Under the pieces are notes generated by a model that saw only the letters and a list, made by a program, of their open reading frames with translations, made no database searches and was not told the origin of the DNA. The position numbers and the translations under genes were made by a program. From positions 1 through 31,639 of IMG/VR virus record IMGVR_UViG_3300042867_001824: 31,639 nucleotides of DNA. One strand, written 5' to 3'. This document shows positions 1 through 30,700 of the stretch, piece by piece (within the stretch, counting starts at the first letter, position 1; every line of letters begins with the position of its first letter). This stretch comes from a virus.

Positions 1-197
1 CCATAAACGCCTGTGTTTAATGTGGCTATAGTGCTTATATTTAAAAGTAATCTCTGATCTCTTGGCAAAGTCTCATCATACATTTGAACTAATTTTACCG
101 AAAATTTTGCCTTGTCGTATGCTGAATCTATTTGTCTTTCATCAACCATCTCGGTTCCAAGAGTAGATTGTTCTAACCATTGTATAAAACTTTTCAA
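1..197 (-). CDS. 5' part of an unknown gene with a capsid-targeting-like N-terminus (cut by window edge)
   Basis: The minus strand is open from about position 254 to the window edge, so the 3' end is missing. No ATG precedes the conserved-looking part. I chose a TTG start at 197-195 because GGGG lies five bases upstream and the peptide would then begin (M)KSFIQWLEQS. That resembles the leaders of other proteins in this window (MKSFLEFWSQ, MKTFYEFMES). A TTG at 242-240 would give a longer product. The visible part is about 65 residues, soluble and helix-rich, and includes DERQIDSAYDKAKFSVKL. I do not recognise the family. A virion-internal role is inferred from the leader alone. Confidence 0.5.
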   Translation of the reverse strand, partial: MKSFIQWLEQSTLGTEMVDERQIDSAYDKAKFSVKLVQMYDETLPRDQRLLLNISTIATLNTGVY

Positions 198-232
198 GTT
201 AGCCCCATTATTTAAAAATAAACTTGTTATAC

Positions 233-240
233 TATTTATC
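233..240 (-). promoter_or_regulatory. possible T4-type late promoter
   Basis: Read on the minus strand this is GATAAATA, one base off the T4 late promoter core TATAAATA. It lies 43 bases upstream of the proposed TTG start at 197. The region is AT-rich, so a chance match is possible. Confidence 0.25.
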
Positions 241-275
241 AATAATTTTGTAATTTAAAATGTAAATAATTTAAC

Positions 276-860
276 ATGAATAACATTACATTAAATTATC
301 TGATAGAAAAACATAAACTAAATGCAAATAGATCTTCTGGAACTGATAAAGTTAGAAGACATAGCTACATTGATGTTTACGAATCTTTGTTTGCATCAAA
401 AAGAAATGAAAATTTGACAATTCTTGAAATTGGAACACATTTTGGTGGTTCTGCTCTTTTATGGCATGATTATTTTCCAAAATCAAATCTTGTTCTTCTT
501 GATATAATGGATAGAACTTTGGATCAACATATGAAACAAATGAATCCAAATAGATATAAAAAAATAATTTCAAATGCTTATTCTCAAGAAGTTGTAAGTC
601 AAATTAAAATTGATTACTCAAATGGATTAGATATAGCCATAGATGATGGGCCACATACTCTACAAAGCCAAAAAGACTTTATACAACTTTATATGCCCAT
701 GATTCGTAAAAATGGAATCCTTGTCATTGAAGATATAAGTAAAATTGAATATGCACATGAACTTAAAAAAATAACACCAGAAAATTACATTTCCGAAGTA
801 ATAGATCTTAGACATGTAAAAAATAGATATGATGATATTATGTTAATTGTCAAAAATTGA
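276..860 (+). CDS. class I SAM-dependent methyltransferase-like protein
   Basis: The 194-residue protein has the Rossmann methyltransferase layout: a glycine-rich SAM motif I, ILEIGTHFGGSALLW (about 50-64), an acidic strand end LVLLDIMD, and a later strand IAIDDGPHTLQSQ followed by GILVIEDI. The D-D-G-P-H pattern is typical of the Methyltransf_24/CmcI-like group, whose phage and bacterial members often act on sugars or small metabolites. The substrate cannot be read from the sequence. No clear Shine-Dalgarno precedes the ATG. It is one of three such genes in the window (with 9453-10166 and 15550-16152), all on the plus strand beside minus-strand genes. A terminator-like hairpin follows directly. 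Confidence 0.75.
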   Translation: MNNITLNYLIEKHKLNANRSSGTDKVRRHSYIDVYESLFASKRNENLTILEIGTHFGGSALLWHDYFPKSNLVLLDIMDRTLDQHMKQMNPNRYKKIISNAYSQEVVSQIKIDYSNGLDIAIDDGPHTLQSQKDFIQLYMPMIRKNGILVIEDISKIEYAHELKKITPENYISEVIDLRHVKNRYDDIMLIVKN

Positions 861-862
861 TG

Positions 863-897
863 AACTAAACATTTAAATTTAATCATTTAGTTTTTTT
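863..897 (+). terminator. rho-independent terminator
   Basis: AACTAAA (863-869) pairs with TTTAGTT (886-892), and the 3' arm runs into a T tract to 897. It follows the methyltransferase stop. The stop codon of the convergent endonuclease gene (883-885) lies inside the loop. Confidence 0.5.
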
Positions 898-2508
898 ATT
901 GTATTTTTCTTTTGCTTTTTTAGATCTGCAAATTTTACACGATCTGCATAATCCGTCTGATTTTGAATTGTCTGGAGAGAAAAGTTTAAATTCCAATATT
1001 TGCAAACAGTTAACGCATTCTTTCTTTCCGTCAGCTACATGAGGATTGTTTTTTTGCAAATGTGGCTTCGCTCTACTTCCTGTTATATGACCTCCCTCAC
1101 GCTCACATATGTAGCGACCATTTCTGGCTATATTCTTATCGTGCGTAAGTCTTAGCGGAGTATGTTCCTCGTTGCAGAAGGAGCAAAATAAGGTGATTTT
1201 GTCGTTGGCAATATGGGTGTGGTAATATCTTTTTGATTTTTGATTGGCATTTTTCTTTGACTGCTCTTGAAATGTTTTGTCTCCTTGAGTTTCAGCAAGG
1301 TATTTCTTGGCCCAAGAAACTATATCCTTATCCGATACAAGTTGGCTATCATCTTCAGTCCATAATTTAAATTTTAATCCTTTTTTTGCTGCGAAATCCT
1401 TCGAATCATTGATTTGATCGATCACAGTTTGATGTTTTAACCATAGTTTTGGCTTTATTTCCCATATTTCTGTTCCACTATTTAATTCTACATAGAGGTC
1501 TGGATTTCTCCATGATTTCTCTCCACGGAAAACTTCACAACGACAAAAAGATTTAACTGAAGGATTTGATTCTAAAAGAAATAGGCATCTTAGTTCATAT
1601 GATGAAGAAAAATAAATAGGTGAATTGTTTTTTTCGGATTGAAAGTAACCTCTAATGTGCGAATGTTTGAAGTCTCCACTAGCGTGTTGACTAGCACATT
1701 TTTTCGAGATGTTTTCCTTCCATGTCATTCGAACCTCTGGTTTTAAATTCATAACCCAACGATTTTTTCCATAATCATAAATTCGTACAAGACCACGACT
1801 AAAGGCCCATTCGGATTCGGTCATACCATCTGGACATTTGCTACTAGATTTCTTCTGGCTTTGTTTGCTTAATCGTTTTTGCAATATGGTGTTTAAGTAC
1901 GAATAATCAGACTTGTGTTTCTTTTCAAGGGTAAATCCAATAGATTCATAGACTTTTCCAATACTCATACGATTGTCACTGAAACTTATGATTTCATCAT
2001 AGTCCATTTTCTTTGCCCAATCTACGGCTTTTTTTAGTAACTTACCAGCACCACCAATCACTTGTGTTTTGGTTCGGAAACATAGTCGATCTAAAACAAT
2101 TTTATTTTCAGATATCTGTCGGCTATGTCTTCCAAGTGACATGACACCAACTAATTCTTCTTTGTGCCAAAGACCAAAATATACTATTCCAAGATTGTTT
2201 GATCCTTGAATGTGAAATTCTTCTAAAAATGATTTTGAATCTAATTTTGAAAGTTCTTTTACCTCACAATTTCTAGCTGACAATCTTTTCGAGTAACAAC
2301 CAGCCTTGGACAACAAAAGTCCTTCCCATTGTTTTCTTCTAGAAGACCATTCGTCTGAAAAAATGACTATATTTGTTCCCGAAGAAGGCGTTTTAAACTT
2401 TGAAAACGATTTCGAATCGGACAAATCGACAAAGTCAATTGCGAGTTCAATACCAATACTTTGCAGCCATTCTTGTGGTGTTGTTTGTTTCATTTTAATT
2501 TTAGCCAT
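883..2508 (-). CDS. homing-endonuclease-like protein: GNAT-like + PD-(D/E)XK + zinc fingers
   Basis: The protein has 541 residues in three parts. Residues about 105-205 form a GNAT-like domain of the type found in viral selfish endonucleases (LDRLCFRTKTQVIGGAGKLL, then SFSDNRMSIGKVYESIGF). Residues about 298-385 look like a TnsA/Vsr-type PD-(D/E)XK nuclease: E305 in SSYELR, D337 in NPDLYV, and E350-x-K352 in WEIKPK. The C-terminus has Cys pairs (C442/C445, C498/C501, C521/C524) suited to zinc binding. It is divergent from a second nuclease gene at 2643, and both lie downstream of the capsid gene. No Shine-Dalgarno is evident at the ATG used; an in-frame ATG follows five codons later. Homing activity is inferred from the architecture, not shown. 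Confidence 0.75.
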   Translation of the reverse strand: MAKIKMKQTTPQEWLQSIGIELAIDFVDLSDSKSFSKFKTPSSGTNIVIFSDEWSSRRKQWEGLLLSKAGCYSKRLSARNCEVKELSKLDSKSFLEEFHIQGSNNLGIVYFGLWHKEELVGVMSLGRHSRQISENKIVLDRLCFRTKTQVIGGAGKLLKKAVDWAKKMDYDEIISFSDNRMSIGKVYESIGFTLEKKHKSDYSYLNTILQKRLSKQSQKKSSSKCPDGMTESEWAFSRGLVRIYDYGKNRWVMNLKPEVRMTWKENISKKCASQHASGDFKHSHIRGYFQSEKNNSPIYFSSSYELRCLFLLESNPSVKSFCRCEVFRGEKSWRNPDLYVELNSGTEIWEIKPKLWLKHQTVIDQINDSKDFAAKKGLKFKLWTEDDSQLVSDKDIVSWAKKYLAETQGDKTFQEQSKKNANQKSKRYYHTHIANDKITLFCSFCNEEHTPLRLTHDKNIARNGRYICEREGGHITGSRAKPHLQKNNPHVADGKKECVNCLQILEFKLFSPDNSKSDGLCRSCKICRSKKAKEKYNKKTK

Positions 2509-3897: not shown

Positions 3898-5343
3898 CTA
3901 AATAATAAAATTAGCAATCGACATTCTTGCGTAGAACTTCGCACCTTCACGAAGCAATTTCTTGCCGTATCGTGTTAAAATTCCCTTACGAGGACAGAAG
4001 CTTTCTGGATCGAGAACAACAGGAGTCTGAGTAAGAGGAACATAAGGGCAGTAGAAATATCCTGAGTCAAGATATGAATCGCCTTTATAGCCCATAAGGA
4101 TTTGGTTAGATGGGAACAATGGATCTTTATATAGTCTCCAACGATTGTTCACAGTACCAACATACTGGATACCCAAGCTGCTGCTGAAAGTTTCAGAAGG
4201 TGCAGGAGCAAAACCAGCGGTTGCGGTTTCAAAGATTGAAGCAACTTCAGGAGATGTAACGATGAAGTTAGCACCACCACGAAGGGTCTTACGATGAATA
4301 ACGGAGGAAATTTCAACGATCTTCACATAGAGAGATTCGTATTTTTCTTTGATAGTATCACCCAAGGAGGTGTTGAAATCCCAAGCGGTTACAGTACCAG
4401 CATTTTGACGGAGGTCGGTGAGAACTTCACGATCAATTTCAAGATTAATTTCTTGAGCAAGAACTGCGGTCAATTCGGCTTCAGCATCCAAGTTGTGTTG
4501 TGAGCGAAGATCTTGTTGAGCTTCATAAGACCATACAGCCTTCAACTTACGGGTTTTGGCAGTAATATCTTCAGATTCAACAACGAGGTTGATTTCTGGA
4601 AGATCTTGTGAGCATTCAAGATTAGCTTCGTAACTTGCAACGATATTGTTTGGGCCAGGGTTGCCGCCAGTCCAAGCAAGGGTAACTATACCGCTAGTAG
4701 GATCTAAACTTGATCCTGCGGAGATTGCTTTTGGGGTAGGAGTTCCGATATCGGTAAAGTTAAATACACCAGCGGAACTTACGCTGAATGTTTGAATAGC
4801 CACAGCACCATCATAAACAGTACCAGTAACGGTTCCTGTCAAGATAGGGGTGTGTTCAAAAGGACTGTATACAGATGTAGCATCTGCACCATCATCGGTA
4901 GCTCCCACTTCATTTTGAACGAACTGATGGGAATAGAAGATATCGAGATTAGCAGTACCATCTGCTCTCTGCATCAATGAATTTGCATCATCGCCAGGGA
5001 AACCGCTATTATTATCAGCACCACGAGTAGCACCCTTGTTGGAAGAGTATCTAAAGCGGAGATAATAAACAAGACCAGTAGGTCCTAGCAAAGGCTGGAC
5101 TGATACGATCTTATTAGCGATCAATTGTGGGTAGATCCTACGAACCAATGGGATTGAGATTCGTTTGAATTGTGCGATGTCAGCGGTGTCGGTAGACACT
5201 TCGTTGATAAGGCGTTGGTTTTCGAGAAGAACTGCTGTGGCTGCACGAGTATTACGGTCTTCGATGCCTTCGAGGAGACCAGTCTTAGCCCAGCGTCCTT
5301 CTAACTCTTTAGCTTCATTTAAAAATCTAGCATTAGCGTTCAT
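3898..5343 (-). CDS. 23: major capsid protein (T4 gp23-like)
   Basis: This 481-residue protein forms the hexameric head lattice. Recognisable T4 gp23 features include the N-terminal W-x-x-x-x-LLEG (18-26), the segment SIPLVRRIYPQLIANKIVSV (63-82) followed by QPLLGPTGLVYYLRF, and the C-terminal DPESFCPRKGILTRYGKKL region. LLE (23-25) and LLE (39-41) fit the L-x-E cleavage pattern of gp21 proteases, so a short N-terminal propeptide is probably removed. Residues about 165-241 form a Gly/Thr/Ser-rich, beta-type insertion. AAGGAAAT precedes the ATG. It is the last gene of the minus-strand head block, 37 bases after the scaffold gene. It is slightly shorter than T4 gp23 (521). Confidence 0.95.
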   Translation of the reverse strand: MNANARFLNEAKELEGRWAKTGLLEGIEDRNTRAATAVLLENQRLINEVSTDTADIAQFKRISIPLVRRIYPQLIANKIVSVQPLLGPTGLVYYLRFRYSSNKGATRGADNNSGFPGDDANSLMQRADGTANLDIFYSHQFVQNEVGATDDGADATSVYSPFEHTPILTGTVTGTVYDGAVAIQTFSVSSAGVFNFTDIGTPTPKAISAGSSLDPTSGIVTLAWTGGNPGPNNIVASYEANLECSQDLPEINLVVESEDITAKTRKLKAVWSYEAQQDLRSQHNLDAEAELTAVLAQEINLEIDREVLTDLRQNAGTVTAWDFNTSLGDTIKEKYESLYVKIVEISSVIHRKTLRGGANFIVTSPEVASIFETATAGFAPAPSETFSSSLGIQYVGTVNNRWRLYKDPLFPSNQILMGYKGDSYLDSGYFYCPYVPLTQTPVVLDPESFCPRKGILTRYGKKLLREGAKFYARMSIANFII

Positions 5344-5380: not shown

Positions 5381-6280
5381 TTACTTTGGTTTCTTTATAC
5401 CTGAAAGAACCAAAATTTGGTCTATTTCACTGCTGTTGTTGCCGACATTTTCCGCAATGACGACTTCTTGATCAACAACTTTTTGTCCTCTCCCCGTTAC
5501 ATTCTTTGCTTTTTCAGATCTTTCTTTCTGTTCTGTGATTACTTCAGATCTCTTCTGTGAAGATGTCGCTTGTTTTTGCTCTGTAATCAAATTTTTAGCA
5601 TAGCGTACATTTTCATTAAGTTTGGTATTTTCGGTAGACAAGCGAATATTGCGAGCTTCCATAATACGGAGTTGGCCTCTAGACTCTTCCAATTGTTTTT
5701 GGAATTCTTCAATTTTAGCCGAAGAGAAGTTTTGAGATTCGTCATCAGACAAATAGTTACTTGCGATATCAACGATTTTATCCAAGGCAACTTTATGTTC
5801 TGCGATACGAGGATCGCTAACAACATCTTTGCGAGCTTGTTCGTAAATTTCTTGACCTTTTGCTTGCAAGAATTGATCTACTTTGTCTACGATATATTCT
5901 TTCATTTCTTGAAGTTTTTTGTCGTATTCTTCATACAACTCAACTTCGATGTTGCCGTTTTTGGATCGTTCGGTCTTCAACATTTGATAAGCTTCTTCGT
6001 ATCCTTCTTCAAGTGCGTTTTTGTATTCTTCGCCTTGAATATCTAGACGATTTCGCAGATCAGCGATGATAGCATATGCTTCTTCATAACCTTGTTCTGC
6101 GGTTTTTTCAGAGTTTGACAATTCTCCAGAAAGTTCAGTATAGGCTTCTTCAAGTTTCTCGTTATATTCTTTTTCGAGATCTAGCTTTGCCTGATTCAGC
6201 ATTTCGTTGATAGCTGAACTTACTTCCTTTACATCGGATTCTGGTAAAAGTTTCTTGATTGCTTCCATTATCTTTTCCAT
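5381..6280 (-). CDS. 22: prohead core scaffolding protein (T4 gp22-like)
   Basis: The 299-residue protein is highly charged and almost entirely helical, as expected for the T4 gp22 scaffold that fills the prohead and is degraded by gp21 before packaging. It has a near-repeat in residues 60-100 (GYEEAYAIIADL and GYEEAYQML), coiled-coil heptads, and a Gln/Lys-rich C-terminal third. The call rests strongly on position: between a gp21-like protease and a gp23-like capsid gene, as in T4. Several (L/I)-x-E tripeptides could be cleavage sites. GAGGTTAGG lies just upstream of the ATG. Confidence 0.88.
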   Translation of the reverse strand: MEKIMEAIKKLLPESDVKEVSSAINEMLNQAKLDLEKEYNEKLEEAYTELSGELSNSEKTAEQGYEEAYAIIADLRNRLDIQGEEYKNALEEGYEEAYQMLKTERSKNGNIEVELYEEYDKKLQEMKEYIVDKVDQFLQAKGQEIYEQARKDVVSDPRIAEHKVALDKIVDIASNYLSDDESQNFSSAKIEEFQKQLEESRGQLRIMEARNIRLSTENTKLNENVRYAKNLITEQKQATSSQKRSEVITEQKERSEKAKNVTGRGQKVVDQEVVIAENVGNNSSEIDQILVLSGIKKPK

Positions 6281-6326: not shown

Positions 6327-7007
6327 TCAAACAATTTTAGATTTTATATTCTTTGTTTGATCTTCAATTATTCCACCTAAGCAAGCTATTAATGCTTCTT
6401 TGCTAATTTTATGTATGCTTCTGCTTTCGTTTTTAACTAAAGAATCAGAAGATTCCACTGAATTATTTGATGGAATGTAACTTTCACGCTTGCTTACAAC
6501 TTTTTCTTGGAAAGCAGAATGTGTAGATGGATCAGCCACTGCATCGAAAGTTAATAGTTTATAACTTTCGCCAATAACAAGAATTCCACTTTCATCTACT
6601 CGTCCGTTGCCAACACCTCTGCTGCTGATTCCAACACGCACACCATCATTGATGAGTGCTTTTAGAATACGGCCATGAGGAGTGTTTAATATCTCGCCTT
6701 CACCCATAAGATTATTTCCTTCCCACCATAACTTAGTAATTACATGGGAAGCTTTTTCGAAATGTATGATACTATCTGTAGGATGATCTAATTCGCCAAT
6801 CAATCCTCTTGCTTCAATTATTGGAGTTAGAGCCTTAACATTGTCGTTTAAGACGCTGTAAGGATATTTCCTTTTATTTTTATTGACAGCTTCTGCTTCT
6901 TGGAATTTTCCTCTAAAGCTAGTTAATCCTTTATTAGTGGATTCATTTAGACTTAGAACGAAACCGCCAGAATTGCAGGAGTCAACAAGTAGCATTTTAT
7001 CACTCAT
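6327..7007 (-). CDS. 21: prohead core serine protease (T4 gp21-like)
   Basis: This maturation protease cleaves scaffold, capsid and internal proteins after assembly. The 226-residue sequence has the herpesvirus-assemblin-like phage protease motifs: SFRGKFQEAEAVNKNKRKYP (30-49), the catalytic His in GELDHP (H75), the catalytic Ser in VGISSRG (S128 or S129), and TFDAVADPS (153-161). A GGAG site precedes the ATG. The gene starts nine bases after the preceding 612-residue gene and is followed by the scaffold gene, so co-expression is likely. The C-terminal 60 residues are charged and may be removed on activation, as in T4. Confidence 0.92.
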   Translation of the reverse strand: MSDKMLLVDSCNSGGFVLSLNESTNKGLTSFRGKFQEAEAVNKNKRKYPYSVLNDNVKALTPIIEARGLIGELDHPTDSIIHFEKASHVITKLWWEGNNLMGEGEILNTPHGRILKALINDGVRVGISSRGVGNGRVDESGILVIGESYKLLTFDAVADPSTHSAFQEKVVSKRESYIPSNNSVESSDSLVKNESRSIHKISKEALIACLGGIIEDQTKNIKSKIV

Positions 7008-7016: not shown

Positions 7017-8855
7017 TTATTGGTTGATTACTGGTCTTTTGCTTTCTGGGGATAAAGTATTCTTAAGATTAGGCCAAGTATCACTATCTTGATATGTTCC
7101 TAATTCATCATTATCTTTATCTGCCCCTTTTTCGCCCTTCATTGTAAATTCAAAAGCATCAGGAATGTAAGGATTGCTTAGGGAAGGCCAAGTATTATCT
7201 CCGCCATCGTTTCCTAAAGCGTCACCCATCATTTCTTCTTCACCACCGAAGGACTTTCCATCACTTACTGGACTATGATCAACACCATATTCATCCCCAC
7301 CATTAAATTTGGAAGGAACAGCATCGGTTTGTCTCGCAGCCCAAGCATTCATGGGGTGATCTCCACCTACTGAGGTATGAACATCCATGTCTTTCCATTC
7401 ACCAGAGTGATCCAAGTTTGCTTCAACCAATTCACTGATATAATCAGCGATATTTTCTGCTAATTCCAAACTAGGAGCAGAATTTCTATTGAGTACAGAT
7501 TCACATTCAGACATGAAACTAGCGGTTTCCACTTTGGCAACTTCATCTCCGATTTGAATTGCTGCTTTATTCATTTCGTGAAGTGCTTTGTATAAATCTG
7601 AGAATACTTTTAGATCAATGCTATCGCTTTCGTCTAGCTTATCAAAGAAATCAACAGCTATGTTTTGAAATTCAACATATGAATCTTTGCATGTTTTGCA
7701 TTCGGAAGTTACATCATTAGAGTAACCAGCCAATTTTGCGATTTTGCTAACACGACCAGTATAAGCATGATGTGCTGTTCTTAGAATTGCTTCTGCCATA
7801 AAGTTGCAGACGCTATCATCATAATTATTTACATTTGCGATTTCAAGAGCTTCAGCGATGTTTGCTGATAGTTCATCTTGCGTCAAATAAAGAACTGATG
7901 GCCATTTTGCGACAATGTTTTCTAAGCATTCTTCAAGATTAGCATTATCAGATATATTGTTATATCGTTTAAGTTCAGCAATAGCCTTTACGAATGATTG
8001 GTCTTCATTTACTCTTTTTGCTTTGCCACGAAGAACTTTAACTTCGGTATCTAAAGTCTTCCAATTAAATGCAAGAACTTTACCTTCGTTACGCTTTTGT
8101 ATGTTTGGAATTGCCAAAGCAACTACATTTCCGTTGTTGTCATTTTTGACTACAGATTCAGAAATAACATGACCATAATTTTTATAATCAACATATCCAA
8201 ATACATTTTCAGCTAATTTAGACCATTCTTTCATAGTCTTTTTAATACGAGTATGAACTCCCCATCGTTTATTGGATGTTTTTCCCAATTTTTTCTTTGC
8301 TTGTGCAGCTTTTCTTTTCATTTCTCTTTTTATAGAATCTGGAATCATCGCTGCTCGTCTAGCTTTAGTGCGAACGCCAGCCATAACTTCAGCATGTGGC
8401 CTTTTCTTACGATATTTTTTTGATCGTTTTCCAGTTGGCTTGCTAGTAGTAACTATAGCCTTATATCCTTCAGTTAGTTCTCTGCGAACATTTGGCATTG
8501 AGAAATATTCTTCAAATTTAGTATTTGCTTTTTGCTTGTTATTATCAAGCAATGCATCAACCATTTCTGAAATGGCATTACGAGAATTTGCTTTTGCTGA
8601 TTCATTATCGATTACAAGCTCTTGAATATTTTCAAGAATAACTTGATCATCTTCTAATTTGTAAATCGCATGAATATATGTATCATCGGATGTTTTATAT
8701 GTAACATCTGATTCTCCGTAGCAATGCAATTCAACATCAACGCCAAGGGTTTTACCCAAAACATCTTGTGCATTGATTAATTCTTGTTCTGATCTTGTCA
8801 AAGATCCTTCTTCTAAATTTCTAAACGCTTCGAAACTGATAAGTTTTCTTTTCAT
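7017..8855 (-). CDS. large head/core protein of unknown family in the gp67/gp68 position
   Basis: This 612-residue protein lies between the portal-side genes and the prohead protease, where T4 has the small core proteins gp67 and gp68. I recognise no named domain. Residues 1-12 (MKRKLISFEAFR) resemble the leader of T4 internal proteins and are followed by NLEEG, a fit to an L-x-E cut site. Residues about 137-214 are very rich in Lys/Arg (for example KRSKKYRKKRP and KREMKRKAAQAKKKLGK), suggesting DNA binding. The middle is helical and the last 110 residues are acidic, Gly/Asp-rich and low in complexity. Several further L-x-E sites (LTE, LAE) are present. An internal, protease-processed head protein is my inference. 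GGGAG lies about ten bases before the ATG. Confidence 0.7.
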   Translation of the reverse strand: MKRKLISFEAFRNLEEGSLTRSEQELINAQDVLGKTLGVDVELHCYGESDVTYKTSDDTYIHAIYKLEDDQVILENIQELVIDNESAKANSRNAISEMVDALLDNNKQKANTKFEEYFSMPNVRRELTEGYKAIVTTSKPTGKRSKKYRKKRPHAEVMAGVRTKARRAAMIPDSIKREMKRKAAQAKKKLGKTSNKRWGVHTRIKKTMKEWSKLAENVFGYVDYKNYGHVISESVVKNDNNGNVVALAIPNIQKRNEGKVLAFNWKTLDTEVKVLRGKAKRVNEDQSFVKAIAELKRYNNISDNANLEECLENIVAKWPSVLYLTQDELSANIAEALEIANVNNYDDSVCNFMAEAILRTAHHAYTGRVSKIAKLAGYSNDVTSECKTCKDSYVEFQNIAVDFFDKLDESDSIDLKVFSDLYKALHEMNKAAIQIGDEVAKVETASFMSECESVLNRNSAPSLELAENIADYISELVEANLDHSGEWKDMDVHTSVGGDHPMNAWAARQTDAVPSKFNGGDEYGVDHSPVSDGKSFGGEEEMMGDALGNDGGDNTWPSLSNPYIPDAFEFTMKGEKGADKDNDELGTYQDSDTWPNLKNTLSPESKRPVINQ

Positions 8856-9043: not shown

Positions 9044-9358
9044 ATGAAAACATTTTATGAATTTATGGAAAGTGTGGGAACTGATTTGGCCAATGAGATT
9101 GGTCCAATGGGATTGACAAAAGAAAGAATGGAAGTTTTGGCACCAATGTTTGTCTTCGTTGATAAATCAATCAATAATGATCCTACCTTCATGAGTAGAC
9201 TATATAATTTATTTAAAACAGAAGTTTCGCAATTTCCACAACTTCAAGAAGATTTTGATAAATTAGATGTTCAAAAAATTAAACGGGCTGTTAGTGGTGT
9301 TGAAAAAAATCGTACTACCGATATGGTTGTTTTGCCTAATTCAGATAGCCCAATGTAA
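9044..9358 (+). CDS. small protein with capsid-targeting-like leader, function unknown
   Basis: The 104-residue protein begins MKTFYEFMES, very close to the MKTYQEFIAE leader of T4 internal proteins IPI and IPIII. After it comes a helical, charged body without recognisable domain motifs. ATGAGG lies just upstream, and a late-promoter-like TATAAGTA is 37 bases before the start. It lies on the plus strand, inserted with a methyltransferase gene into the minus-strand head block between portal and core genes. An internal head protein is a plausible inference. F-M-E/S or a later site would have to serve for cleavage, and neither is a perfect L/I-x-E match. Confidence 0.65.
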   Translation: MKTFYEFMESVGTDLANEIGPMGLTKERMEVLAPMFVFVDKSINNDPTFMSRLYNLFKTEVSQFPQLQEDFDKLDVQKIKRAVSGVEKNRTTDMVVLPNSDSPM

Positions 9359-12997: not shown

Positions 12998-13591
12998 ATG
13001 AAAAAAGTTTTATTTTTATCAAGTCATTTAGGATCTGAGTCTGATCAATTATATGTCGCTTTTTGCGATTTATTATCAATTCAGGGATACAAAAAAGAAA
13101 ATATCTATAGAAGCATGCAAGATATATATATTTTAACAGAAAGAAAGCATAAACTCAAAACATCGGCAAGAGTTTACATGGATCATTTGCTTTTTAATTA
13201 TCAATTTTCATGTAAACAAGCATACGAAAATTGTAAATTTATATTTCTTGTACGAGAACCAGAGGAGACAATTGAATTTTTGGTTTCAAATAAATTTTAT
13301 AATAAAAAAGATGCAATTTCATATTATCTTTACAGAATCAGAAGGATATGTGAAATGGCAAAGAATGCAAAAGACGGATTATTTTTAACACACGCAAATT
13401 TAAAAAATGGCAAAGGAATACAGGAAATTAAAGATTATCTTAACATAAAAGAAAGATTTAATTTTGTTTTTGAAAATATTGAAAATAAAAATAAAAATAT
13501 TTTGACATATAAAGAAATTGAAAATTTAAATCAGGTTTATGAAAAATATCTTTATTTTGTTCATAATATTAATTGCATTAGCATTAAATAA
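12998..13591 (+). CDS. sulfotransferase-like P-loop protein (tentative)
   Basis: The 197-residue protein starts with a hydrophobic strand and turn, KKVLFLSSHLGSESDQLYVA. In the middle it has KFIFLVREPEETIEFLV, which resembles the 3'-phosphate-binding F-I-x-L-V-R-(D/E)-P motif of sulfotransferases. The N-terminal loop is not a textbook 5'-PSB motif, so catalytic activity is uncertain. It is highly Lys/Asn/Ile-rich like its neighbours. AAGG lies nine bases before the ATG. It is divergent from the portal gene and three bases upstream of a small gene, with which it may be co-expressed. If it is a sulfotransferase, phage surface glycans or host metabolites are possible substrates. Confidence 0.55.
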   Translation: MKKVLFLSSHLGSESDQLYVAFCDLLSIQGYKKENIYRSMQDIYILTERKHKLKTSARVYMDHLLFNYQFSCKQAYENCKFIFLVREPEETIEFLVSNKFYNKKDAISYYLYRIRRICEMAKNAKDGLFLTHANLKNGKGIQEIKDYLNIKERFNFVFENIENKNKNILTYKEIENLNQVYEKYLYFVHNINCISIK

Positions 13592-13594: not shown

Positions 13595-13813
13595 ATGAAA
13601 TTTTTAGATTGGATTATAAAAAGAGACGAGAACTTTAATGCGACCATGCCTTCTGATGTTGGAGACGCAGGTGGAAAAGACACTGATATTCCTCCATTAG
13701 AAACTAGAGGGGCTTTTCCATTCTATTCAGATGAGGAAAAGCCACCTGTTCCGCCAAGACTCAAAAAAGAAAAATGTAGCAAAAAGAAAAATCAATTTGG
13801 GAATAAAATATAA
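13595..13813 (+). CDS. small unknown protein with a MKFLDW leader
   Basis: The 72-residue product starts MKFLDWIIKRDENF, a short amphipathic leader similar to others in this window. It continues as a disordered-looking, Pro- and charge-rich chain (DIPPLETRGAFPFYSDEE, then PPVPPRLKKE) with a basic C-terminus. It starts three bases after the preceding stop, and its 3' end overlaps the convergent peptidase gene by 22 bases. No domain is recognised. It could be a small virion protein; the low complexity means it could also be a chance frame. Confidence 0.5.
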   Translation: MKFLDWIIKRDENFNATMPSDVGDAGGKDTDIPPLETRGAFPFYSDEEKPPVPPRLKKEKCSKKKNQFGNKI

Positions 13814-14655: not shown

Positions 14656-15066
<411 letters not shown>

Positions 15067-17791: not shown

Positions 17792-17842
17792 GATTGCCTC
17801 CTTGGAATAATGTGATATAATATATAATAATTTAAGGTTATA

Positions 17843-17850
17843 TATAAATT
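17843..17850 (+). promoter_or_regulatory. possible late promoter in the divergent region
   Basis: TATAAATT, one base off TATAAATA, lies 34 bases upstream of the plus-strand ATG at 17877. The interval 17792-17876 separates divergent genes, is almost pure A/T and must carry promoters for both. Confidence 0.3.
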
Positions 17851-17876
17851 TAATATTTACATGATATGGAAACAAT

Positions 17877-19524: not shown

Positions 19525-20604
19525 TTACGCCTTCCTGATTCCAAAGGTGGTCTCATATCCAGCAGAAACATATAGCCAGTTGGTGTCTGCCATAATCGTT
19601 TGTACTGGTGATGATCTATTATCAGTTGTTTCATCACCTAATCTACCATTACCATTGTCACCCCAAACCCAACATGTTCCATCATTCTTTATTGCAGCAG
19701 AATGATATTGTCCACCTTCAACCTGCTTCCAATCAGTTCCATATGTAACTGTTTGAATTGGCGAAGATCTATCATTTGTTGTCTCGTCACCTAATTGACC
19801 ATCACCATTATTTCCCCAAGTCCAGCATGTTCCATTATTCTTGATCGCAAGCATATGATAGTCACCACAAGAAATTTGCTTCCAATCAGTTCCATATGTA
19901 ACCGTTTGAACTGGTGAAGATCTATCATTTGTTGTCTCGTCACCTAATTGTCCATAACCATTTCTTCCCCAAGTCCAGCATGTTCCATCGTTCTTGATTG
20001 CTGCGATAAAATCTTTACCACAAGAAACAGATTTCCAATCAATTCCACCACATATTGTTTGAACTGGTGATGATTTAGTTACACTCGTATTGTCGCCTAA
20101 TTGTCCATTTGAATTTTGACCCCAGCACCACAAAGTTCCATTGTCCTTTATAGCTGCTGTGTGACTGCCACCAGACGCAACTTGCTTCCAATCAGTTCCG
20201 CCACATATCGTCTGTACTGGCGATGATTTATCATCAGTTGTCTCATCACCAATTTCTCCATCAGAATTATGACCCCAAAGCCATAATGTGCCATCAGTCT
20301 TTATAGCAGCACAATGTTCGAAATAGGTTCCAACCACCATTGTTTTCCAATCATTTCCACCACATATCGTTTGAACAGGTGATGATTTATCATCAGTTGT
20401 ATTATCACCTAAACCACCATCTTCGTTCTGACCCCAAGTCCAAAGAGTTCCATCATCCTTCAAACCAGCGATATTGTAATAGCCACAATTGATTTGAACC
20501 CAATTGCTACCACCGCAAATCGTCTGTACTGGAGATGATCTGTCATCTGTTGTATTGTCGCCAAGTTCTCCGTTACCATTATTCCCAACGCCCCATACCG
20601 TTCC
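19525..20604 (-). repeat. seven tandem RCC1-encoding repeats
   Basis: A period of about 150-156 bases is visible at DNA level. Phrases such as GGTGATGATTTATCATCAGTTG (on the plus strand, with variations) recur, and repeats 5 and 6 are nearly identical in protein (GQLGDETTNDRSS in both). The high identity between units suggests recent duplication or gene conversion. Confidence 0.85.
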
Positions 20605-22343: not shown

Positions 22344-22793
22344 TTAAAATCCAGAATTAATGCCACGAATAATTTGTTTTAATTCGTCAACATCTAATCT
22401 GCTTTCTTCTATTTGCTTTTCAAGAAATATATGAATCCAGTCACCATCAACTGTTTTCAAATCTTCAGCTTGATGCATTCTTGTTGAGTAATTAGAAACT
22501 ACTTCCTCTTCAAGTGTCAAGGCTTGTTTCAATATATCTGCTGGATTCTTTAATTTTGGTAATTTTTCATAATAGGGTATATTGGTTATTTCAATACCAA
22601 GCCCAACTAGAAGATCACTAAATTGACTTACATGCCTTAATTCTTTGCTGGATTCTTCTAAAAAATGTTCTTTATATTCTTTTGAGTGTAATCCTTGAAC
22701 TAAAGCAGCACTTTGCAAATAAAAATGCAAATGAGTTAGTTCATTGCGAAGATCGCTTGCCAACAAGGTGTAAAGTTCGTCTTTGGTTATCAT
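22344..22793 (-). CDS. ferritin-like di-iron protein
   Basis: The protein has 149 residues from the ATG at 22793. That ATG overlaps the previous stop (ATGA) and has GGAG six bases upstream; an ATG 12 bases earlier is less suitable. The four-helix pattern resembles bacterioferritin: Glu18 in NELTHLHFYLQ, Glu51 and His54 in SKELRHVSQF, a Glu cluster at 95-97, and Glu125-Glu130 in EKQIEES. The last position is Glu where bacterioferritin has His. Iron storage, ferroxidase or peroxide protection is likely in the family, but the phage role is unknown. It is coupled to an exported peptidase gene. Confidence 0.78.
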   Translation of the reverse strand: MITKDELYTLLASDLRNELTHLHFYLQSAALVQGLHSKEYKEHFLEESSKELRHVSQFSDLLVGLGIEITNIPYYEKLPKLKNPADILKQALTLEEEVVSNYSTRMHQAEDLKTVDGDWIHIFLEKQIEESRLDVDELKQIIRGINSGF

Positions 22794-23896
22794 TTTTTGC
22801 TCCATTCGTTAAAGTTTTTAATTCCATGATCGTGATCGTAATTCATTTCTTTAAAGTCACTATGATTGAATACTGGTTTATTTTCTTCCTGTGATATCTT
22901 CCAAATTAATTCTAGTGCATATTTTGAAATATTTTCTATACCGTTGTAATTTAATTTATCTGCCGTGTCTTGTGGCGTGTGATAATAATCATGTCCTCCA
23001 GTATGGAGAAATGCTATTGGTATTTTTTTATTATAAAAGCTTGCATGATCGCTTCCGCTAGTTCCCCTAGTGGTTATACTTTTTGCAAAGCTATATTTAT
23101 CACTAAGCTCACCGATATATCTTGTAATATCTACAGAGCTATTTAAATCAGAGAAACCTGCAAGCTGTTTTCCTTTTTTAAGGTATCCAATCATATCCAT
23201 ATTAAGCATAAATGTATGATTTTTTATATTAGGATTATCTTGTGGAAATAATGGGTTGTTTACATAATATAGGCTACCAAGCAAACCCATTTCTTCTGCT
23301 GAAAATGCTATAAACAAAATTGTTCTTTTATTTTTAAGTTTTGACATACCTTTAGCAATTTCAAGTAAAGCAGCAGTACCAGATGCATTATCGTCAGCAC
23401 CAGGGTGTATTTTTATTTTTGACTGCATGCTCATTTGAGGTCCATAACCGATATGATCCATATGTGCGCCAACAACTATGATTTCATCTTTTAAATTTTC
23501 TTCTTTGCCTTCTGACCATGCTAAAATATTATTTGTAAAATCATCCCCAGATTCTTTATTTGGCCCATAATTTAATTTTTTGATTGGGAATTTTTGATAT
23601 TTTGATTTATAGCCATAAGACTCAAATTTGTTTTTAATAAATTCTGCTGCTAAAATGTTGCCTTTTTTACCAGACATTCTTCCTTCAAGCTCTTGAGATG
23701 CTAAATATTCAACAGTTTTTTGGGAAGAATCGCTTGTTATTTTAGATAAACCTTCATTTAGCGATTCAAATTTTTGAGGTTCTTTATCAAGTTTTTCATT
23801 ATTTTCTTGAAATTCTTTTATATTTGTTGTTTTAGAAATGTAAACAATTAAAAGCATAAATCCTAATACTAATATTGTAATTTGTAATTTTTTCAT
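22790..23896 (-). CDS. exported M28-family metallo-aminopeptidase
   Basis: The protein has 368 residues from the ATG at 23896, which has GGGAG five bases upstream. The N-terminus is a signal peptide or anchor (KKLQITILVLGFMLLIVYI). All zinc ligands of M28 co-catalytic peptidases are visible: His145 in GAHMDHIG, Asp168 in PGADDNASG, Glu201-Glu202 in SAEEMGLLGS, Asp234 in NMDMIG, and His306 in YYHTPQDT. It should trim peptides in the periplasm or outside. Phage-borne M28 enzymes are uncommon, so this is probably acquired from a bacterium. It is divergent from terminase and overlaps the ferritin-like gene by four bases. Confidence 0.88.
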   Translation of the reverse strand: MKKLQITILVLGFMLLIVYISKTTNIKEFQENNEKLDKEPQKFESLNEGLSKITSDSSQKTVEYLASQELEGRMSGKKGNILAAEFIKNKFESYGYKSKYQKFPIKKLNYGPNKESGDDFTNNILAWSEGKEENLKDEIIVVGAHMDHIGYGPQMSMQSKIKIHPGADDNASGTAALLEIAKGMSKLKNKRTILFIAFSAEEMGLLGSLYYVNNPLFPQDNPNIKNHTFMLNMDMIGYLKKGKQLAGFSDLNSSVDITRYIGELSDKYSFAKSITTRGTSGSDHASFYNKKIPIAFLHTGGHDYYHTPQDTADKLNYNGIENISKYALELIWKISQEENKPVFNHSDFKEMNYDHDHGIKNFNEWSKK

Positions 23897-23972
23897 GATA
23901 TCTCCCAAATAAAATTTCATTTTCCTATATATTTTAAAGTAGTTTCATAAAAAAAGAAAGTCATTTAAAATA

Positions 23973-27968: not shown

Positions 27969-28847
27969 ATGAAAAAATTTATTATAAACCTTTTCTGTTT
28001 ATTTACTATTTTATCTACAAATTTGGCATTTGGTCAAGAAATAAAAGTACATCCTCTTGACAAAATGCCATTATTGCCATCAAAAATTGGCTATTATGGC
28101 GAAGCACCTGTCGAGCAAAGAGGGATTGAATTTAGAAAATGGTTGGCACCATCGGTTAAAATAGCTGTGTCGGATGGTTCTGGTTCTGGAACTATAGTTT
28201 ATTACGATTCTTTAAAAAACATAGCTTATGTGGCTACATGTGGTCATCTTTGGAATTATGGAGTTATGAATTCTCAAGAAGGATTAAAAAGAAATATAAC
28301 ATGTAAAATAATCACATGGTTTCATAATGAAAAAAAATTAGCAGAACCAAAAACATATACTGCGAAAGTTCTTTTTTACAATCATATCACTGGAGCAGAC
28401 ACAGCACTTGTTTCGTTTGAACCAGATTGGGTGCCAAATTATTTTCCAATTGCACCTAAAAATTACCAGTATAAAAAAGGTAGTATTATGCATAGTTGTG
28501 GATGTGATGGTGGTGACGAAGTGGCTCATTATGAGGTCGAAGTGGTTGGTGTAATTAATGAAAGTCTGACAACAATAAAAAATAGCCCAAGACCAGGCCG
28601 TTCTGGTGGTGGTTTAATGGATGATAAATATTACATTGCAACTTGTTGGGCAACATCAATGTATAAAGGAACAAGTGAGGGTTATTTTACGCCACTGCCA
28701 GTAATTCATGATATATGGACAAAAAATGGATATGAATTTTTACTCAAGATCAGACCAGATTTTGATTTAGCTAAAAAATTAAAAATTATTGATAGAACTG
28801 TTAGGCAGAATAAGTATGACGAAGAATATATTTTGATTCCAAATTAA
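27969..28847 (+). CDS. exported trypsin-like (S1-fold) serine protease
   Basis: The 292-residue protein has a signal peptide (KKFIINLFCLFTILSTNLAFG, cleavage near residue 22). The mature part carries the chymotrypsin-fold catalytic set: His93 in YVATCGHLW, Asp144 in TGADTALVSF, and Ser212 in GRSGGGL. Cys residues are spread through the fold (C91, C177, C179). GAGGAAAT precedes the ATG. It should act in the periplasm or outside the cell. Together with the M28, papain-like and thermolysin-like enzymes it makes this window unusually rich in peptidases. The next gene follows after ten bases. Confidence 0.85.
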   Translation: MKKFIINLFCLFTILSTNLAFGQEIKVHPLDKMPLLPSKIGYYGEAPVEQRGIEFRKWLAPSVKIAVSDGSGSGTIVYYDSLKNIAYVATCGHLWNYGVMNSQEGLKRNITCKIITWFHNEKKLAEPKTYTAKVLFYNHITGADTALVSFEPDWVPNYFPIAPKNYQYKKGSIMHSCGCDGGDEVAHYEVEVVGVINESLTTIKNSPRPGRSGGGLMDDKYYIATCWATSMYKGTSEGYFTPLPVIHDIWTKNGYEFLLKIRPDFDLAKKLKIIDRTVRQNKYDEEYILIPN

Positions 28848-28856
28848 GGTTTTTAT

Positions 28857-29702
28857 ATGATGACATTTTTAGAATTTTTAGATTATAAAGAAAATAACAA
28901 TTTATCTTCTGATGAATATACCGAACTTCAATCAACATTAAGAAAAATGATGTCTGACAATCTTGATCTTGGAAATTTCGTATCAAATCTTAAGCAATTT
29001 ATTTCTAACCCTAAGTTTGTTGATTTTTTAAAATCTGGTGATGAAAATGATGCTTTGAAAATCACAAGAAAAAATATACCTGTAGCTGATTTAATTCCAA
29101 CTCAAGATGAAATTTTTCTTGAATCATCTTTAGATAATGGATTAACTGATAGATTTGGCAACCTTGCACAATTCCTTGATGGTAATGCACAAGTAAAGGG
29201 CTATGTAGTCACTTGTATGGTGAATGGTAGTGTTTTCATTCTTGATGGTCATCATAGGTGGTCACAATATTTTCTATTTAATCCGCAATCAGAAGTTCCT
29301 TGTTTGATAATTGAAAATTTAAATTCATATTTAAGAGGATTAAAAATAGCACATTTAGCTGTTGCTGCAAAATTAAGTAGTGTTCCTTCAGCTTCTGGAA
29401 GTGAAACTAATCTATTCACCATAGATTACGAATCATTTGAAAACCATATTAAAAATATAATTACAGAAAAATCATTACAAATATTTATTGATAAGAATTT
29501 AGCCAAAAATGTTGATGATGTGGTTGATTTTCTTTGGAATAATGTATTAAAAATAAGAAAATACAATTTAGGAAAAGAATCAAGAGGTTTAATGCCTCAA
29601 ACTGGTGGTGCTGCCAAAGGATTTGAAAAAGACTTAGAACAAGGAAAAATAAATGTCATCCCAGATTGGTTGACTTTATCTGGATTATTGGCAGAAAATT
29701 AA
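28857..29702 (+). CDS. ParB/sulfiredoxin-fold protein with capsid-targeting-like leader (copy 1)
   Basis: The 281-residue protein starts MMTFLEFLDYKE, a T4-internal-protein-like leader. The ParB/Srx core spans about residues 72-160: VADLIPTQDEI, a strand GYVVTCMVNGSVFI, and DGHHRWSQYF (130-139), in which G-H-H-R replaces the G-E-R-R of ParB or the G-C-H-R of sulfiredoxin. The family includes nucleases, CTPases and ATP-using kinases. The C-terminal part (LMPQTGGAAKGFE, then IPDWLTLSGL) is shared with the next gene. It follows the protease gene by ten bases with AAGG upstream. It is a tandem paralogue of 29744-30700. Confidence 0.75.
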   Translation: MMTFLEFLDYKENNNLSSDEYTELQSTLRKMMSDNLDLGNFVSNLKQFISNPKFVDFLKSGDENDALKITRKNIPVADLIPTQDEIFLESSLDNGLTDRFGNLAQFLDGNAQVKGYVVTCMVNGSVFILDGHHRWSQYFLFNPQSEVPCLIIENLNSYLRGLKIAHLAVAAKLSSVPSASGSETNLFTIDYESFENHIKNIITEKSLQIFIDKNLAKNVDDVVDFLWNNVLKIRKYNLGKESRGLMPQTGGAAKGFEKDLEQGKINVIPDWLTLSGLLAEN

Positions 29703-29743
29703 AATTTTATATTATATATAATAAATCAATAACAGGAGACATA

Positions 29744-30700
29744 ATGAAATCATTTTTAGAGTTTTGGAGCCAAATAAAAGAAGAAGCACCAGTAGCACCA
29801 CAAACACCAGTAGTGGGGCAACAACAAGTGGCTAAACAAGCACCAGTAGCACCACAAACACCAGTAGTGGGGCAACAACAAGTGGCTAAACAAGCACCAG
29901 CAGCAGGACAGCAACAAGTTACAGAAGTATTAAAATCTATAATGGCTGCTCCAAATATGGAAAATTTTATAAGTCAATTGCAAAATGCAATAAATAAACC
30001 AGAATTTTTAGAATTGTTGAATAGTGGAGATGGACAAAAAGATAAAATAGCCATTTCTGATAAGCCAATTCCTGCCAATAAACTGATTCCAACTCAAGCT
30101 GAAATTTATCTAAGCAAATCAATAGACATGGGAATACAAAAACCAGAAAAACTTTTATCTGGTGATCCTTCTGCTATTCCTGGTAGTATTATTGTTGGAG
30201 CTACAAAAGATGGAAAATATGCAATTATTGATGGTCATCATAGATGGTCACAATATTTTGTTTTTAATCCACAATCAGAAATTAATTGTAAAATTTTAGA
30301 AGGAATTAATTCCTCTCTTGATGCACTAAAAACTACTCAATTGGCACTAACTGCAAAAAGTGGCACAGTAAAATTAGAGTCTGATAGCGGAGTGGATTTA
30401 ATGACCATATCTGAGCAAGTTTTTAAAGATTATGTATTGGAAAAGTTAAAAGCCGCACAAACGCTTCCTATCTTTACAAAAGTAATACCAGAAATAAAAG
30501 ATGAAAATCAAGCAGTTGATTATTTGTGGAAAAATGTATTACTATTGCAGTCAATTAAAGGAAAGCAAGATCAAGCAAACGCAAGACCTTTAATGCCTCA
30601 AACTGGCAGTGCTAAAGGTTGGGATGCAGCATTGCAAGCTGGACAGGTTAATATTGTTCCTGATTGGCTAGTACTTTCTGGCGTAGTCATTCGTGACTAA
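29744..30700 (+). CDS. ParB/sulfiredoxin-fold protein with capsid-targeting-like leader (copy 2)
   Basis: The protein has 318 residues. I use the ATG at 29744 because AGGAG precedes it; the open frame extends 26 codons further up. The leader MKSFLEFWSQIKE is followed by a perfect I-x-E site (IKE, 11-13) for a gp21-type protease. Residues 14-60 are a Pro/Gln/Val-rich linker with two 18-residue direct repeats and a partial third. The ParB/Srx core follows (NKLIPTQAEI, IIVGATKDGKYAIIDGHHRW), then the same C-terminal region as copy 1. The extended linker distinguishes it from copy 1. A function as an injected effector is inferred. Confidence 0.78.
   Translation: MKSFLEFWSQIKEEAPVAPQTPVVGQQQVAKQAPVAPQTPVVGQQQVAKQAPAAGQQQVTEVLKSIMAAPNMENFISQLQNAINKPEFLELLNSGDGQKDKIAISDKPIPANKLIPTQAEIYLSKSIDMGIQKPEKLLSGDPSAIPGSIIVGATKDGKYAIIDGHHRWSQYFVFNPQSEINCKILEGINSSLDALKTTQLALTAKSGTVKLESDSGVDLMTISEQVFKDYVLEKLKAAQTLPIFTKVIPEIKDENQAVDYLWKNVLLLQSIKGKQDQANARPLMPQTGSAKGWDAALQAGQVNIVPDWLVLSGVVIRD
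29786..29920 (+). repeat. 54-bp direct repeats within copy 2 of the ParB-like gene
   Basis: Two identical 54-base units (29786-29839 and 29840-29893) each encode APVAPQTPVVGQQQVAKQ. A shortened, diverged third unit follows. Identical tandem units indicate recent duplication, and linker length is probably variable between relatives. Confidence 0.92.

What the first reader, a model, noticed from the sequence alone, without database searches (positions are those of the whole stretch)
1..30700. Shared capsid-targeting-like leader on several unrelated proteins: possible packaged and injected protein set
Seen in the sequence: five proteins of different size and strand start with a closely similar decapeptide: (M)KSFIQWLEQS at 197 (minus, TTG start), MKTFYEFMES at 9044, MKFLDWIIKR at 13595, MMTFLEFLDY at 28857, and MKSFLEFWSQ at 29744. 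The 612-residue core-region protein starts MKRKLISFEAF. Established: T4 internal proteins IPI and IPIII begin MKTYQEFIAE, a capsid-targeting sequence that is cut by gp21 after I-A-E. This window has a gp21-like protease, and copy 2 of the ParB-like pair has I-K-E right after its leader. Inference: these leaders mark head-internal proteins. The two ParB/Srx paralogues would then be effectors injected into the host with the DNA. The 13595 and 28857 leaders lack a perfect cut site, so the set may be smaller.
Basis: partly seen in the sequence, partly recalled or inferred. Interest (0 to 1): 0.8.

Follow-up and report, generated by a model that had tools for sequence, protein, structure and literature searches.

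The report
Megaphage packaging tags on many proteins
A group of giant freshwater phages appears to put a short T4-like "pack me into the head" tag on dozens of unrelated proteins, which probably travel inside the virus particle and enter the bacterium with its DNA.

Summary
The window is a fragment of a megaphage with T4-type head genes (S77 protease, gp23, gp20, gp17). Its five leaders match the T4 capsid-targeting sequence (CTS). Such leaders start 145 ORFs (119 families) in five relatives of 137-595 kb: 130 of 2359 first ATGs carry the core, against 34 of 6720 internal ATGs.

Positions not used for selection agree with T4: T/S before the first aromatic, E/Q two after it, Glu five to nine after it (119 of 145; 35 expected). 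In homologues of the 197(-) protein, F4 and W7, the T4 targeting positions, are invariant (13 of 13 aligned).

Half of the genes with a T4-late-type box abutting the ATG carry the core (64 of 127; 66 of 2232 without box). One relative has 12 consecutive leader genes, some with near-identical promoter-plus-leader DNA on unrelated bodies. Cargo includes RNA-repair, NUDIX, 2H-phosphodiesterase and C39 domains. None of 18 DnaB, RNR and AAA ORFs read has it at the first ATG.

Packaging, cleavage and injection are inferred, not shown. The ParB/Srx label of the pair at 28857/29744 is weak. I rate this a strongly expanded variant of a known system.

The parts
3..197 (-). Leader-bearing protein, cut by the contig end (206 aa in relatives); TTG start, leader (M)KSFIQWLEQ before a conserved body starting STLGTE; HECTH (zincin-type) motif in the full-length relatives
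   Evidence: F4 and W7 invariant in 13 of 13 aligned homologues (14 distinct; near-identical L190 left out). HECTH also invariant, but IVHECTHE was one of the six search patterns, so that part is partly built in
209..214 (-). TAAATA late-promoter-like box, first base at -17 of the TTG start
   Evidence: sequence
9044..9358 (+). 104-aa leader protein MKTFYEFMES, between the core protein and the portal
   Evidence: homologues at 27-33% identity in L024, L031 and L032 (E 1e-4 to 4e-14); the two aligned (L024, L031) keep MKTF..[FY][MI]E
13595..13813 (+). 72-aa leader protein MKFLDWIIKRDE-N
   Evidence: F..W and E-N invariant in 8 of 8 aligned proteins; in L029, L032 and L089 the row is the significant tblastn match, L041, L057 and L076 are look-alikes without one, and in L091 the match lies elsewhere
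13585..13590 (+). TAAATA late-promoter-like box, first base at -10 of the ATG
28857..29702 (+). Leader protein, copy 1 of the DGHHRW (ParB/Srx-like?) pair: MMTFLEFLDYKE-N
   Evidence: domain label weak
29744..30700 (+). Leader protein, copy 2 of the pair: MKSFLEFWSQIKE-E
   Evidence: leader 11 of 14 identical to the G008 copy, rest 78 of 247 (G008 was reached through gp23 and copy 1)
7017..8855 (-). 612-aa prohead-core-region protein (by position), MKRKLISFEAFRNLEE; the same core after a longer N-terminus
   Evidence: F/Y at residue 8 in 30 of 30 and F at 11 in 29 of 30 distinct homologues printed
6327..7007 (-). gp21-type prohead protease (Peptidase_S77)
   Evidence: PF03420 E = 9.8e-28, over cut-off
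5381..6280 (-). Protein in the gp22 scaffold position
   Evidence: position between gp21 and gp23; only phrog_10922 (unknown function) E = 7.6e-6
3898..5343 (-). Major capsid protein gp23
   Evidence: PF07068 E = 3.8e-87
5200..5211 (-). Predicted gp21 cut site L-I-N-E in gp23
   Evidence: L-[IMVF]-N-E-[VAI] in 19 of 19 clade MCPs aligned (18 of 80 loci plus LR756511); the T4 gp23 cut site used for comparison is recalled

Best explanation
The shared leader is a T4-type capsid-targeting sequence (CTS). Late in infection (inferred) these phages make many small and medium proteins whose first 10-15 residues follow M-[KL]-T-F-[KR]-[EQ]-[FW]-L-E-x-x-E, probably a short amphipathic helix. The aromatics at about residues 4 and 7 dock the protein into the prohead core (inferred from T4). 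The S77 protease then cuts after a glutamate about 9-13 residues in (inferred). The mature protein stays in the head with the DNA and enters the host with it (inferred). The tag is modular: unrelated proteins carry it, often with their own late-promoter-like box directly before the start codon, so promoter plus leader acts as a 'make late and pack' cassette. The window proteins at 197(-), 9044, 13595, 28857 and 29744 belong to this set, and the 612-aa core-region protein carries a version of the motif.
For: First ATG versus internal ATG: LR756511 52/943 vs 15/1826; G001 16/624 vs 5/1937; G002 23/347 vs 10/1445; G003 18/276 vs 3/982; G004 21/169 vs 1/530. Unselected positions follow T4; Glu at +5 to +9 in 119 of 145 vs mean 34.6, maximum 51 in 300 draws. 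T4 positive control: ipII, ipIII and gene 61.1 are hit. In T4, residues 4 and 7 target, 8 and 10 govern processing (PMC9026906, passages). F4 and W7 invariant in 13 of 13 aligned homologues of the 197(-) protein; one of six search patterns was its leader, but the 61% and 47% relatives have other leader letters and cannot have come in by it. F..W and E-N invariant in 8 of 8 aligned 13595-like proteins. Copy-2 leader 11/14 vs rest 78/247. Orthologues whose leaders differ in length meet at Glu-Ser: WLNE-SSLND, WMHLDE-SSLND, FLNLKE-STLLD. 145 leader proteins fall into 119 families, 101 singletons (blastp E 1e-3). Leader core on 64 of 127 boxed vs 66 of 2232 unboxed first-ATG genes. Twelve consecutive leader genes in G004, 11 with a box at -11/-10; two neighbouring pairs share 31/33 and 28/33 leader bases with bodies at 14/45 and 17/45. 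None of 3 DnaB, 3 RNR and 12 AAA ORFs has it at the first ATG.
Against: No proteomics; packaging, cleavage and injection are untested. By the internal-ATG rate about 13 of the 130 first-ATG hits are chance; two DnaG-type primases and, probably, an FkbM methyltransferase without box are false positives. The commonest Glu position (+5, 53 of 145) has an aromatic, not I/L, at P3, and L181 (MKTFIEWLQSTLGTE) has no Glu at the leader end, so the cut rule is not a clean copy of T4's. 61 of 145 leaders have no box, and boxed starts were one way into that list; only the first-ATG table is free of this. The box is not proof of late expression: LR756511's DnaB-type ORF has TAAATA 15 bases before its ATG. 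Of the window genes, 28857 and 29744 have no box next to the ATG (29744 has TATATA about 30 bases upstream). T4 itself is not significant in the start test (3/147 vs 2/361, p = 0.15), and LR756508, which also has a gp23-type capsid gene, shows no enrichment in 150 of 484 kb. One AAA ORF matches the core at an internal TTG/GTG. My ORF caller is simple and lists spurious ORFs.
Confidence: 0.85

Rival explanations
1. The leader is an N-terminal coding signal for translation of late mRNAs that begin at the start codon, and has nothing to do with packaging.
For: Box at -11 or -10 upstream of 71 of 145 leader genes; strong association in the first-ATG table.
Against: 63 of 127 boxed first-ATG genes lack the leader, among them a 1640-aa ORF. 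61 of 145 leaders have no box. Conservation is at protein level: the core Phe codon is TTT 40, TTC 18 in the 42% GC genome but TTT 4, TTC 16 and TTT 10, TTC 17 in the 53% and 56% GC genomes.
Confidence: 0.05
2. The leader is a docking helix for another late assembly (membrane site, tail, or an intracellular compartment), not the head.
For: No direct evidence of head location. Leader proteins are scattered over the genomes, not confined to head gene clusters.
Against: Match to the T4 CTS, including the two targeting positions, and the same motif on a protein encoded next to the S77 protease. Weak or no enrichment in 150-kb samples of huge phages LR756508 and LR756501 (whether they have an S77 protease was not tested).
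Confidence: 0.08
3. Chance: short N-terminal stretches of this form arise by composition, and the five look alike by selection.
For: The motif is short; some false positives exist (DnaG-type primases).
Against: Internal ATGs of the same ORFs give 34 of 6720, first ATGs 130 of 2359 (summed); F4/W7 invariant in a homologous family.
Confidence: 0.02

Closest known systems
T4 capsid-targeting sequence of IPI, IPII, IPIII and Alt (PMC9026906 and PMC5694885, passages; Mullaney and Black 1996, which they cite, was not seen)
   Same: 10-20-residue N-terminal leader on unrelated proteins, aromatics at 4 and 7, Glu at the processing site, S77 protease and gp23, cargo that differs between phages
   Different: 18-58 leader ORFs per genome or fragment here (raw counts) against the few of T4; Glu often at +5 or +8 and not only +6; late-type box abuts the start codon; arrays of cassettes; cargo includes recognisable enzymes
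Ejection proteins of giant phage SPN3US / phiKZ group (PMC5694885, passages)
   Same: Giant phage, many head-internal proteins, prohead protease processing
   Different: Propeptides there are mostly much longer (several over 100 residues); here about 10-15 and T4-like
T4-like late promoters of Aeh1 (CTAAATA from -12) and T4 (TATAAATA, -13 to -6) (PMC1524935, passages)
   Same: Same -10 element; CTAAATA is frequent here
   Different: Placed so that transcription would start at or within a base or so of the start codon; none of 147 first ATGs in the first 100 kb of T4 has this arrangement. Leaderless phage mRNAs as such are not new (PMC5312081, passage)

Membership tests
T4-type capsid-targeting sequence | Short N-terminal leader shared by otherwise unrelated proteins | tested here: met
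   145 leaders, 119 families
T4-type capsid-targeting sequence | Aromatic residues at 4 and 7 (targeting positions in T4, PMC9026906) | tested here: met
   F4/W7 invariant in 13 of 13 aligned homologues; in the 105 leaders of three genomes F is residue 4 in 57, 3 in 21, 5 in 16, 6 in 11
T4-type capsid-targeting sequence | gp21 cut motif (hydrophobic)-x-E at the end of the leader | tested here: inconclusive
   Glu strongly enriched at +5, +6 and +8; clade MCPs keep L-[IMVF]-N-E; at +5 the P3 residue is aromatic; L181 lacks the Glu
T4-type capsid-targeting sequence | S77 prohead protease and gp23 in the same genome | tested here: met
   window: PF03420 9.8e-28, PF07068 3.8e-87; gp22 by position only
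T4-type capsid-targeting sequence | Late expression | tested here: inconclusive
   Late-type box association 64/127 vs 66/2232; no transcript data
T4-type capsid-targeting sequence | Protein found in the virion, leader removed, injected | not testable with these tools
   needs proteomics
ParB/Srx fold (28857 and 29744) | Profile match to ParB/Srx | tested here: inconclusive
   phrog_1033 E = 0.0017 for copy 2, none for copy 1; no ParB family in Pfam; PDB profile search: best hit an ATP synthase subunit (E = 0.089), then E = 0.15-0.27 over the DGHHR stretch to a 242-aa hypothetical protein and free serine kinases
Zincin metalloprotease (197(-) protein) | HExxH motif in a zincin fold | tested here: inconclusive
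   HECTH in 13 of 13, partly built in by the search pattern IVHECTHE; no Pfam match; no Foldseek hit at E <= 0.001

The most novel reading that the evidence does not exclude
In these megaphages a portable 5' cassette, a late promoter placed on the start codon plus a capsid-targeting leader, is copied in front of arbitrary genes and so builds a large packaged protein set (some 14-44 per genome or fragment after subtracting chance) that is delivered with the DNA. It includes RNA-repair and nucleotide-cleaving enzymes (CCA-adding-type nucleotidyltransferase, HAD of RNA-repair type, 2H phosphodiesterases, one of them matching the anti-CBASS Acb1 model, NUDIX) and cysteine proteases that would act in the first minutes against host defences.
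Probability: 0.5. Interest if true: 0.82.

Novelty: new variant of a known kind. Interest (0 to 1): 0.7.

Why it matters
Which proteins an uncultured huge phage carries in its particle cannot easily be measured. If the leader is a CTS, the packaged set can be read from sequence alone. That gives a ready list of candidate early-acting counter-defence proteins in genomes where most genes are unnamed, and each prediction (in the virion, cut after a named Glu) can be tested by mass spectrometry.

Tried and rejected
AlphaFold2 of the 28857 protein (6 sequences) gave mean pLDDT 40 and was not used. The 197(-) family model (mean pLDDT 70.8) draws a helix at 4-11, but residues 7-20 are below 50, so I give it no weight; Foldseek found nothing at E <= 0.001. 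An S-adenosylmethionine lyase as cargo was considered and not claimed: the census hit could not be traced to a protein; the genome hits are a leaderless ORF in G004 and a sub-threshold match inside leader gene G001 28798, which Pfam did not confirm. FkbM methyltransferase and DnaG hits are judged false positives, as is NADAR (picked by eye, not scanned alone). The second list used a wrong slice of the upstream sequence and was replaced. The simple [IL]xE count is biased by the motif's own hydrophobic positions, so only Glu counts at unselected positions are used. Invariance of HECTH was first taken as evidence and then marked down because it was a search pattern. Literature searches listed 25 of 55, 20 of 101, 25 of 42 and 3 of 3 papers; no listed title or abstract start reports such a set in huge phages; unlisted papers and subscription journals were not seen. 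Papers: passages only of PMC9026906, PMC3012670, PMC5694885, PMC1524935, PMC9391042 and PMC5312081; all others as listings.
Full report
What the window is. The 31.6-kb window is a virus record with T4-type head genes: gp23 (PF07068, E = 3.8e-87), gp20 portal with an intein, gp17 and a gp21-type S77 protease (PF03420, E = 9.8e-28). The nearest relative listed from the phage collection is LR756511.1, a 595,163-bp uncultured phage (gp23 77.7% identical); the head-gene block is collinear there at 523-534 kb, while the block from the terminase to the 16133 gene is inverted. IMG/VR holds many pieces of the clade (381 gp23 relatives, best 80 kept).

The observation. The five N-termini are as stated. 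In the window the loosened motif is at 4 of 35 first ATGs and 0 of 153 internal ATGs. For the TTG-started 197(-) protein, homologues begin MKTFIEWLQ-STLGTE, MNFSKWFYEQG-STIGTE, MKKFKEWLSEQ-STVGTE and MNFKHWFIEN-ATLGTE (the dash marks where the conserved body begins, not a cut), several with a TAAATA or TATATA box upstream. In 13 aligned homologues F4 and W7 are invariant (14 distinct sequences from 23 loci, near-identical L190 left out). One of the six search patterns was the leader MKSFIQWL, but the relatives at 61% and 47% identity have different leader letters, so they came in by other patterns. The HECTH motif was itself part of a pattern, so its invariance counts for less.

Genome-wide test. 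I called ORFs with a simple greedy caller in five larger relatives (LR756511; G001 532,729 bp; G002 343,421; G003 223,268; G004 136,667) and asked for a core: M, up to three residues, a polar residue or Gly, F, two residues, F/W/Y, then one of I, L, M, V, F, W, A, C, T. First ATG versus internal ATG: 52/943 vs 15/1826, 16/624 vs 5/1937, 23/347 vs 10/1445, 18/276 vs 3/982 and 21/169 vs 1/530. The internal rate predicts about 13 chance hits among the 130 (7.7, 1.6 and 2.4; the rest is arithmetic). Comparison phages: LR756508 (150 of 484 kb) 2/202 vs 1/269; LR756501 (150 of 735 kb) 7/206 vs 8/621, p = 0.07; T4 (first 100 kb) 3/147 vs 2/361, p = 0.15; Mel-JY01 (100 of 190 kb) 1/105 vs 3/422; the cultured Stenotrophomonas phage CM1 (200 of 320 kb) 7/247 vs 4/817, p = 0.005. 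With Y allowed for F, ipII and ipIII of T4 are hit. So the motif is T4-like in kind and much expanded in this clade; CM1 shows a small set.

Residue pattern. The 145 leaders are starts that match the core and are either the first ATG or have a box. Positions not used to choose them show T/S/N before the Phe, R/K at +1 and E/Q at +2, and Glu at +5 (53), +6 (22) and +8 (50) against 9.2 expected per position. Glu occurs within +5 to +9 in 119 of 145 (mean 34.6, maximum 51 in 300 draws from protein bodies). A T4 review states that CTS residues 4 and 7 direct targeting and residues 8 and 10 processing (PMC9026906, passages). The clade's gp23 keeps L-[IMVF]-N-E-[VAI] in 19 of 19 sequences aligned (18 of the 80 loci plus LR756511), a likely cut site. 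Glu at +5 would put an aromatic at P3, which is unlike T4, and L181 has no Glu at the leader end; the cut rule is therefore open.

Conservation in families. Orthologues meet at Glu-Ser although the leaders differ in length: WLNE-SSLND (LR756511), WMHLDE-SSLND (G001), FLNLKE-STLLD (G006, close kin of the window). The window's copy-2 protein and its G008 counterpart share 11 of 14 leader residues but 78 of 247 in the rest. For the 13595 protein, 8 of 8 aligned sequences keep F..W and E-N; three of the seven relatives (L029, L032, L089) are significant tblastn matches at that place, L041, L057 and L076 are look-alikes without one, and in L091 the match lies elsewhere. For the 9044 protein, homologues at 27-33% identity lie in L024, L031 and L032; the two aligned (L024, L031) keep MKTF..[FY][MI]E. 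The 612-aa protein beside the protease keeps [FY] at residue 8 in 30 of 30 and F at 11 in 29 of 30 distinct homologues printed.

Promoter link. A box TA[AT]ATA has its first base at -11 or -10 in 71 of 145 leader genes (box was one way into that list). Taking first ATGs only, which is free of this, 64 of 127 boxed genes carry the core against 66 of 2232 unboxed genes (p = 7.5e-53). In T4 the late element TATAAATA spans -13 to -6, and in Aeh1 CTAAATA starts at -12 (PMC1524935, passages). By that rule these transcripts would start at or next to the AUG. Boxed genes without the leader include a 1640-aa ORF. The box is no proof of late timing: a DnaB-type ORF of LR756511 has TAAATA 15 bases before its ATG.

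Modularity. The 145 leader proteins fall into 119 families, 101 of them singletons, 17 present in two or more genomes (blastp E 1e-3 on the part after residue 14). In G004 twelve consecutive ORFs at 90.2-98.3 kb carry the leader (eleven by the pattern, one by eye), eleven with a box at -11/-10. Neighbours share promoter and leader DNA but not bodies: 31/33 leader bases and 14/45 body bases for 90152/90666; 28/33 and 17/45 for 94128/95000. A SAM-synthetase-like gene a few kb before this array (84358, named by eye) has no leader.

Cargo. 103 of the 105 leader proteins of three genomes were scanned as a set (two cross locus borders); 58 of the 103 were also scanned one by one and 43 of these 58 have no match at the limits used. 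Named: tRNA-ligase-type 2H phosphodiesterase (LR756511 411779), 2'-5' RNA ligase/Acb1-like (G002 262132), C39 peptidase (LR756511 429897), PolyA_pol/tRNA nucleotidyltransferase (LR756511 580680), HAD of RNA-repair type (LR756511 582920), NUDIX (G001 157341; the domain match begins at residue 14, directly after the leader), thymidylate-kinase-like (G001 347051), radical SAM (G002 122708), DUF3293 (G002 100814), DUF5661 (LR756511 440552), a KOW-type match (LR756511 419122). The other matches are weak or judged false (MgtE_N, UME, DnaJ zinc domain, FkbM). Ten G004 array-region proteins gave one clear match, PolyA_pol at 86966. As a control, 3 DnaB, 3 ribonucleotide reductase and 12 AAA matches were read: none has the leader at its first ATG; one AAA ORF matches at an internal TTG/GTG. 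T4 internal proteins are described as counter-defence proteins (IPI against GmrSD, PMC3012670; IPIII needed on ECOR17, PMC9391042; passages), so such a cargo would fit, but no activity was tested.

What is shown and what is inferred. Shown: the leader is real, start-specific, conserved, modular, linked to a late-type box, and matches the T4 CTS. Inferred from T4: late timing, core docking, cleavage, packaging, injection. Uncertain: the functions of the window's own five proteins. The pair at 28857/29744 has a conserved DGHHRW but only weak ParB-like matches; the 197(-) protein has HECTH but no fold match.

Verdict. It is most likely a strongly expanded, cassette-like variant of the T4 capsid-targeting system.

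Noticed in passing
LR756511, G001-G004 upstream of many ATGs: A T4-late-type box TA[AT]ATA with its first base at -11/-10 of the start codon, which would give mRNAs without a 5' untranslated region; also on genes without the leader.
   Followed up: partly
window 10418-12928 (-): Portal protein gp20 carries an intein (PF14890, E = 2.2e-12).
   Followed up: no
window 883-2508 (-): Mom-family match (E = 8.9e-10) with a weak TnsA-like match in one 541-aa protein: possible DNA modification plus nuclease fusion.
   Followed up: no
window 14656-15066 (-): 136-aa protein that is mostly runs of aspartate.
   Followed up: no
window 19525-21456 (-): Protein with RCC1 repeats (PF00415, E = 1.4e-62); its N-terminal part is similar to LR756511 172.7-173.6 kb.
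   Followed up: no
window 22790-23920 (-), 27969-28847 (+), 16133-17926 (-): Peptidase M28, a trypsin-like match just under its cut-off with a signal-peptide-like start (by eye), and a protein with HEFGH (by eye, no Pfam match): several possible proteases in 31 kb.
   Followed up: no
window 22344-22805 (-): Ferritin-like protein (PF00210, E = 1.1e-11).
   Followed up: no
G004 82.5-98.3 kb (mostly L215): Region dense in leader genes; two products (85986-, 95607+) have a YH[RV]T stretch reminiscent of ADP-ribosyltransferases (recalled motif, by eye; Pfam found nothing clear for 95607, 85986 was not scanned).
   Followed up: partly
T4 record 18966-19130 (-), gene 61.1: Hypothetical T4 protein of 54 aa begins MKTFKEFIKE, a CTS-like start.
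   Followed up: no
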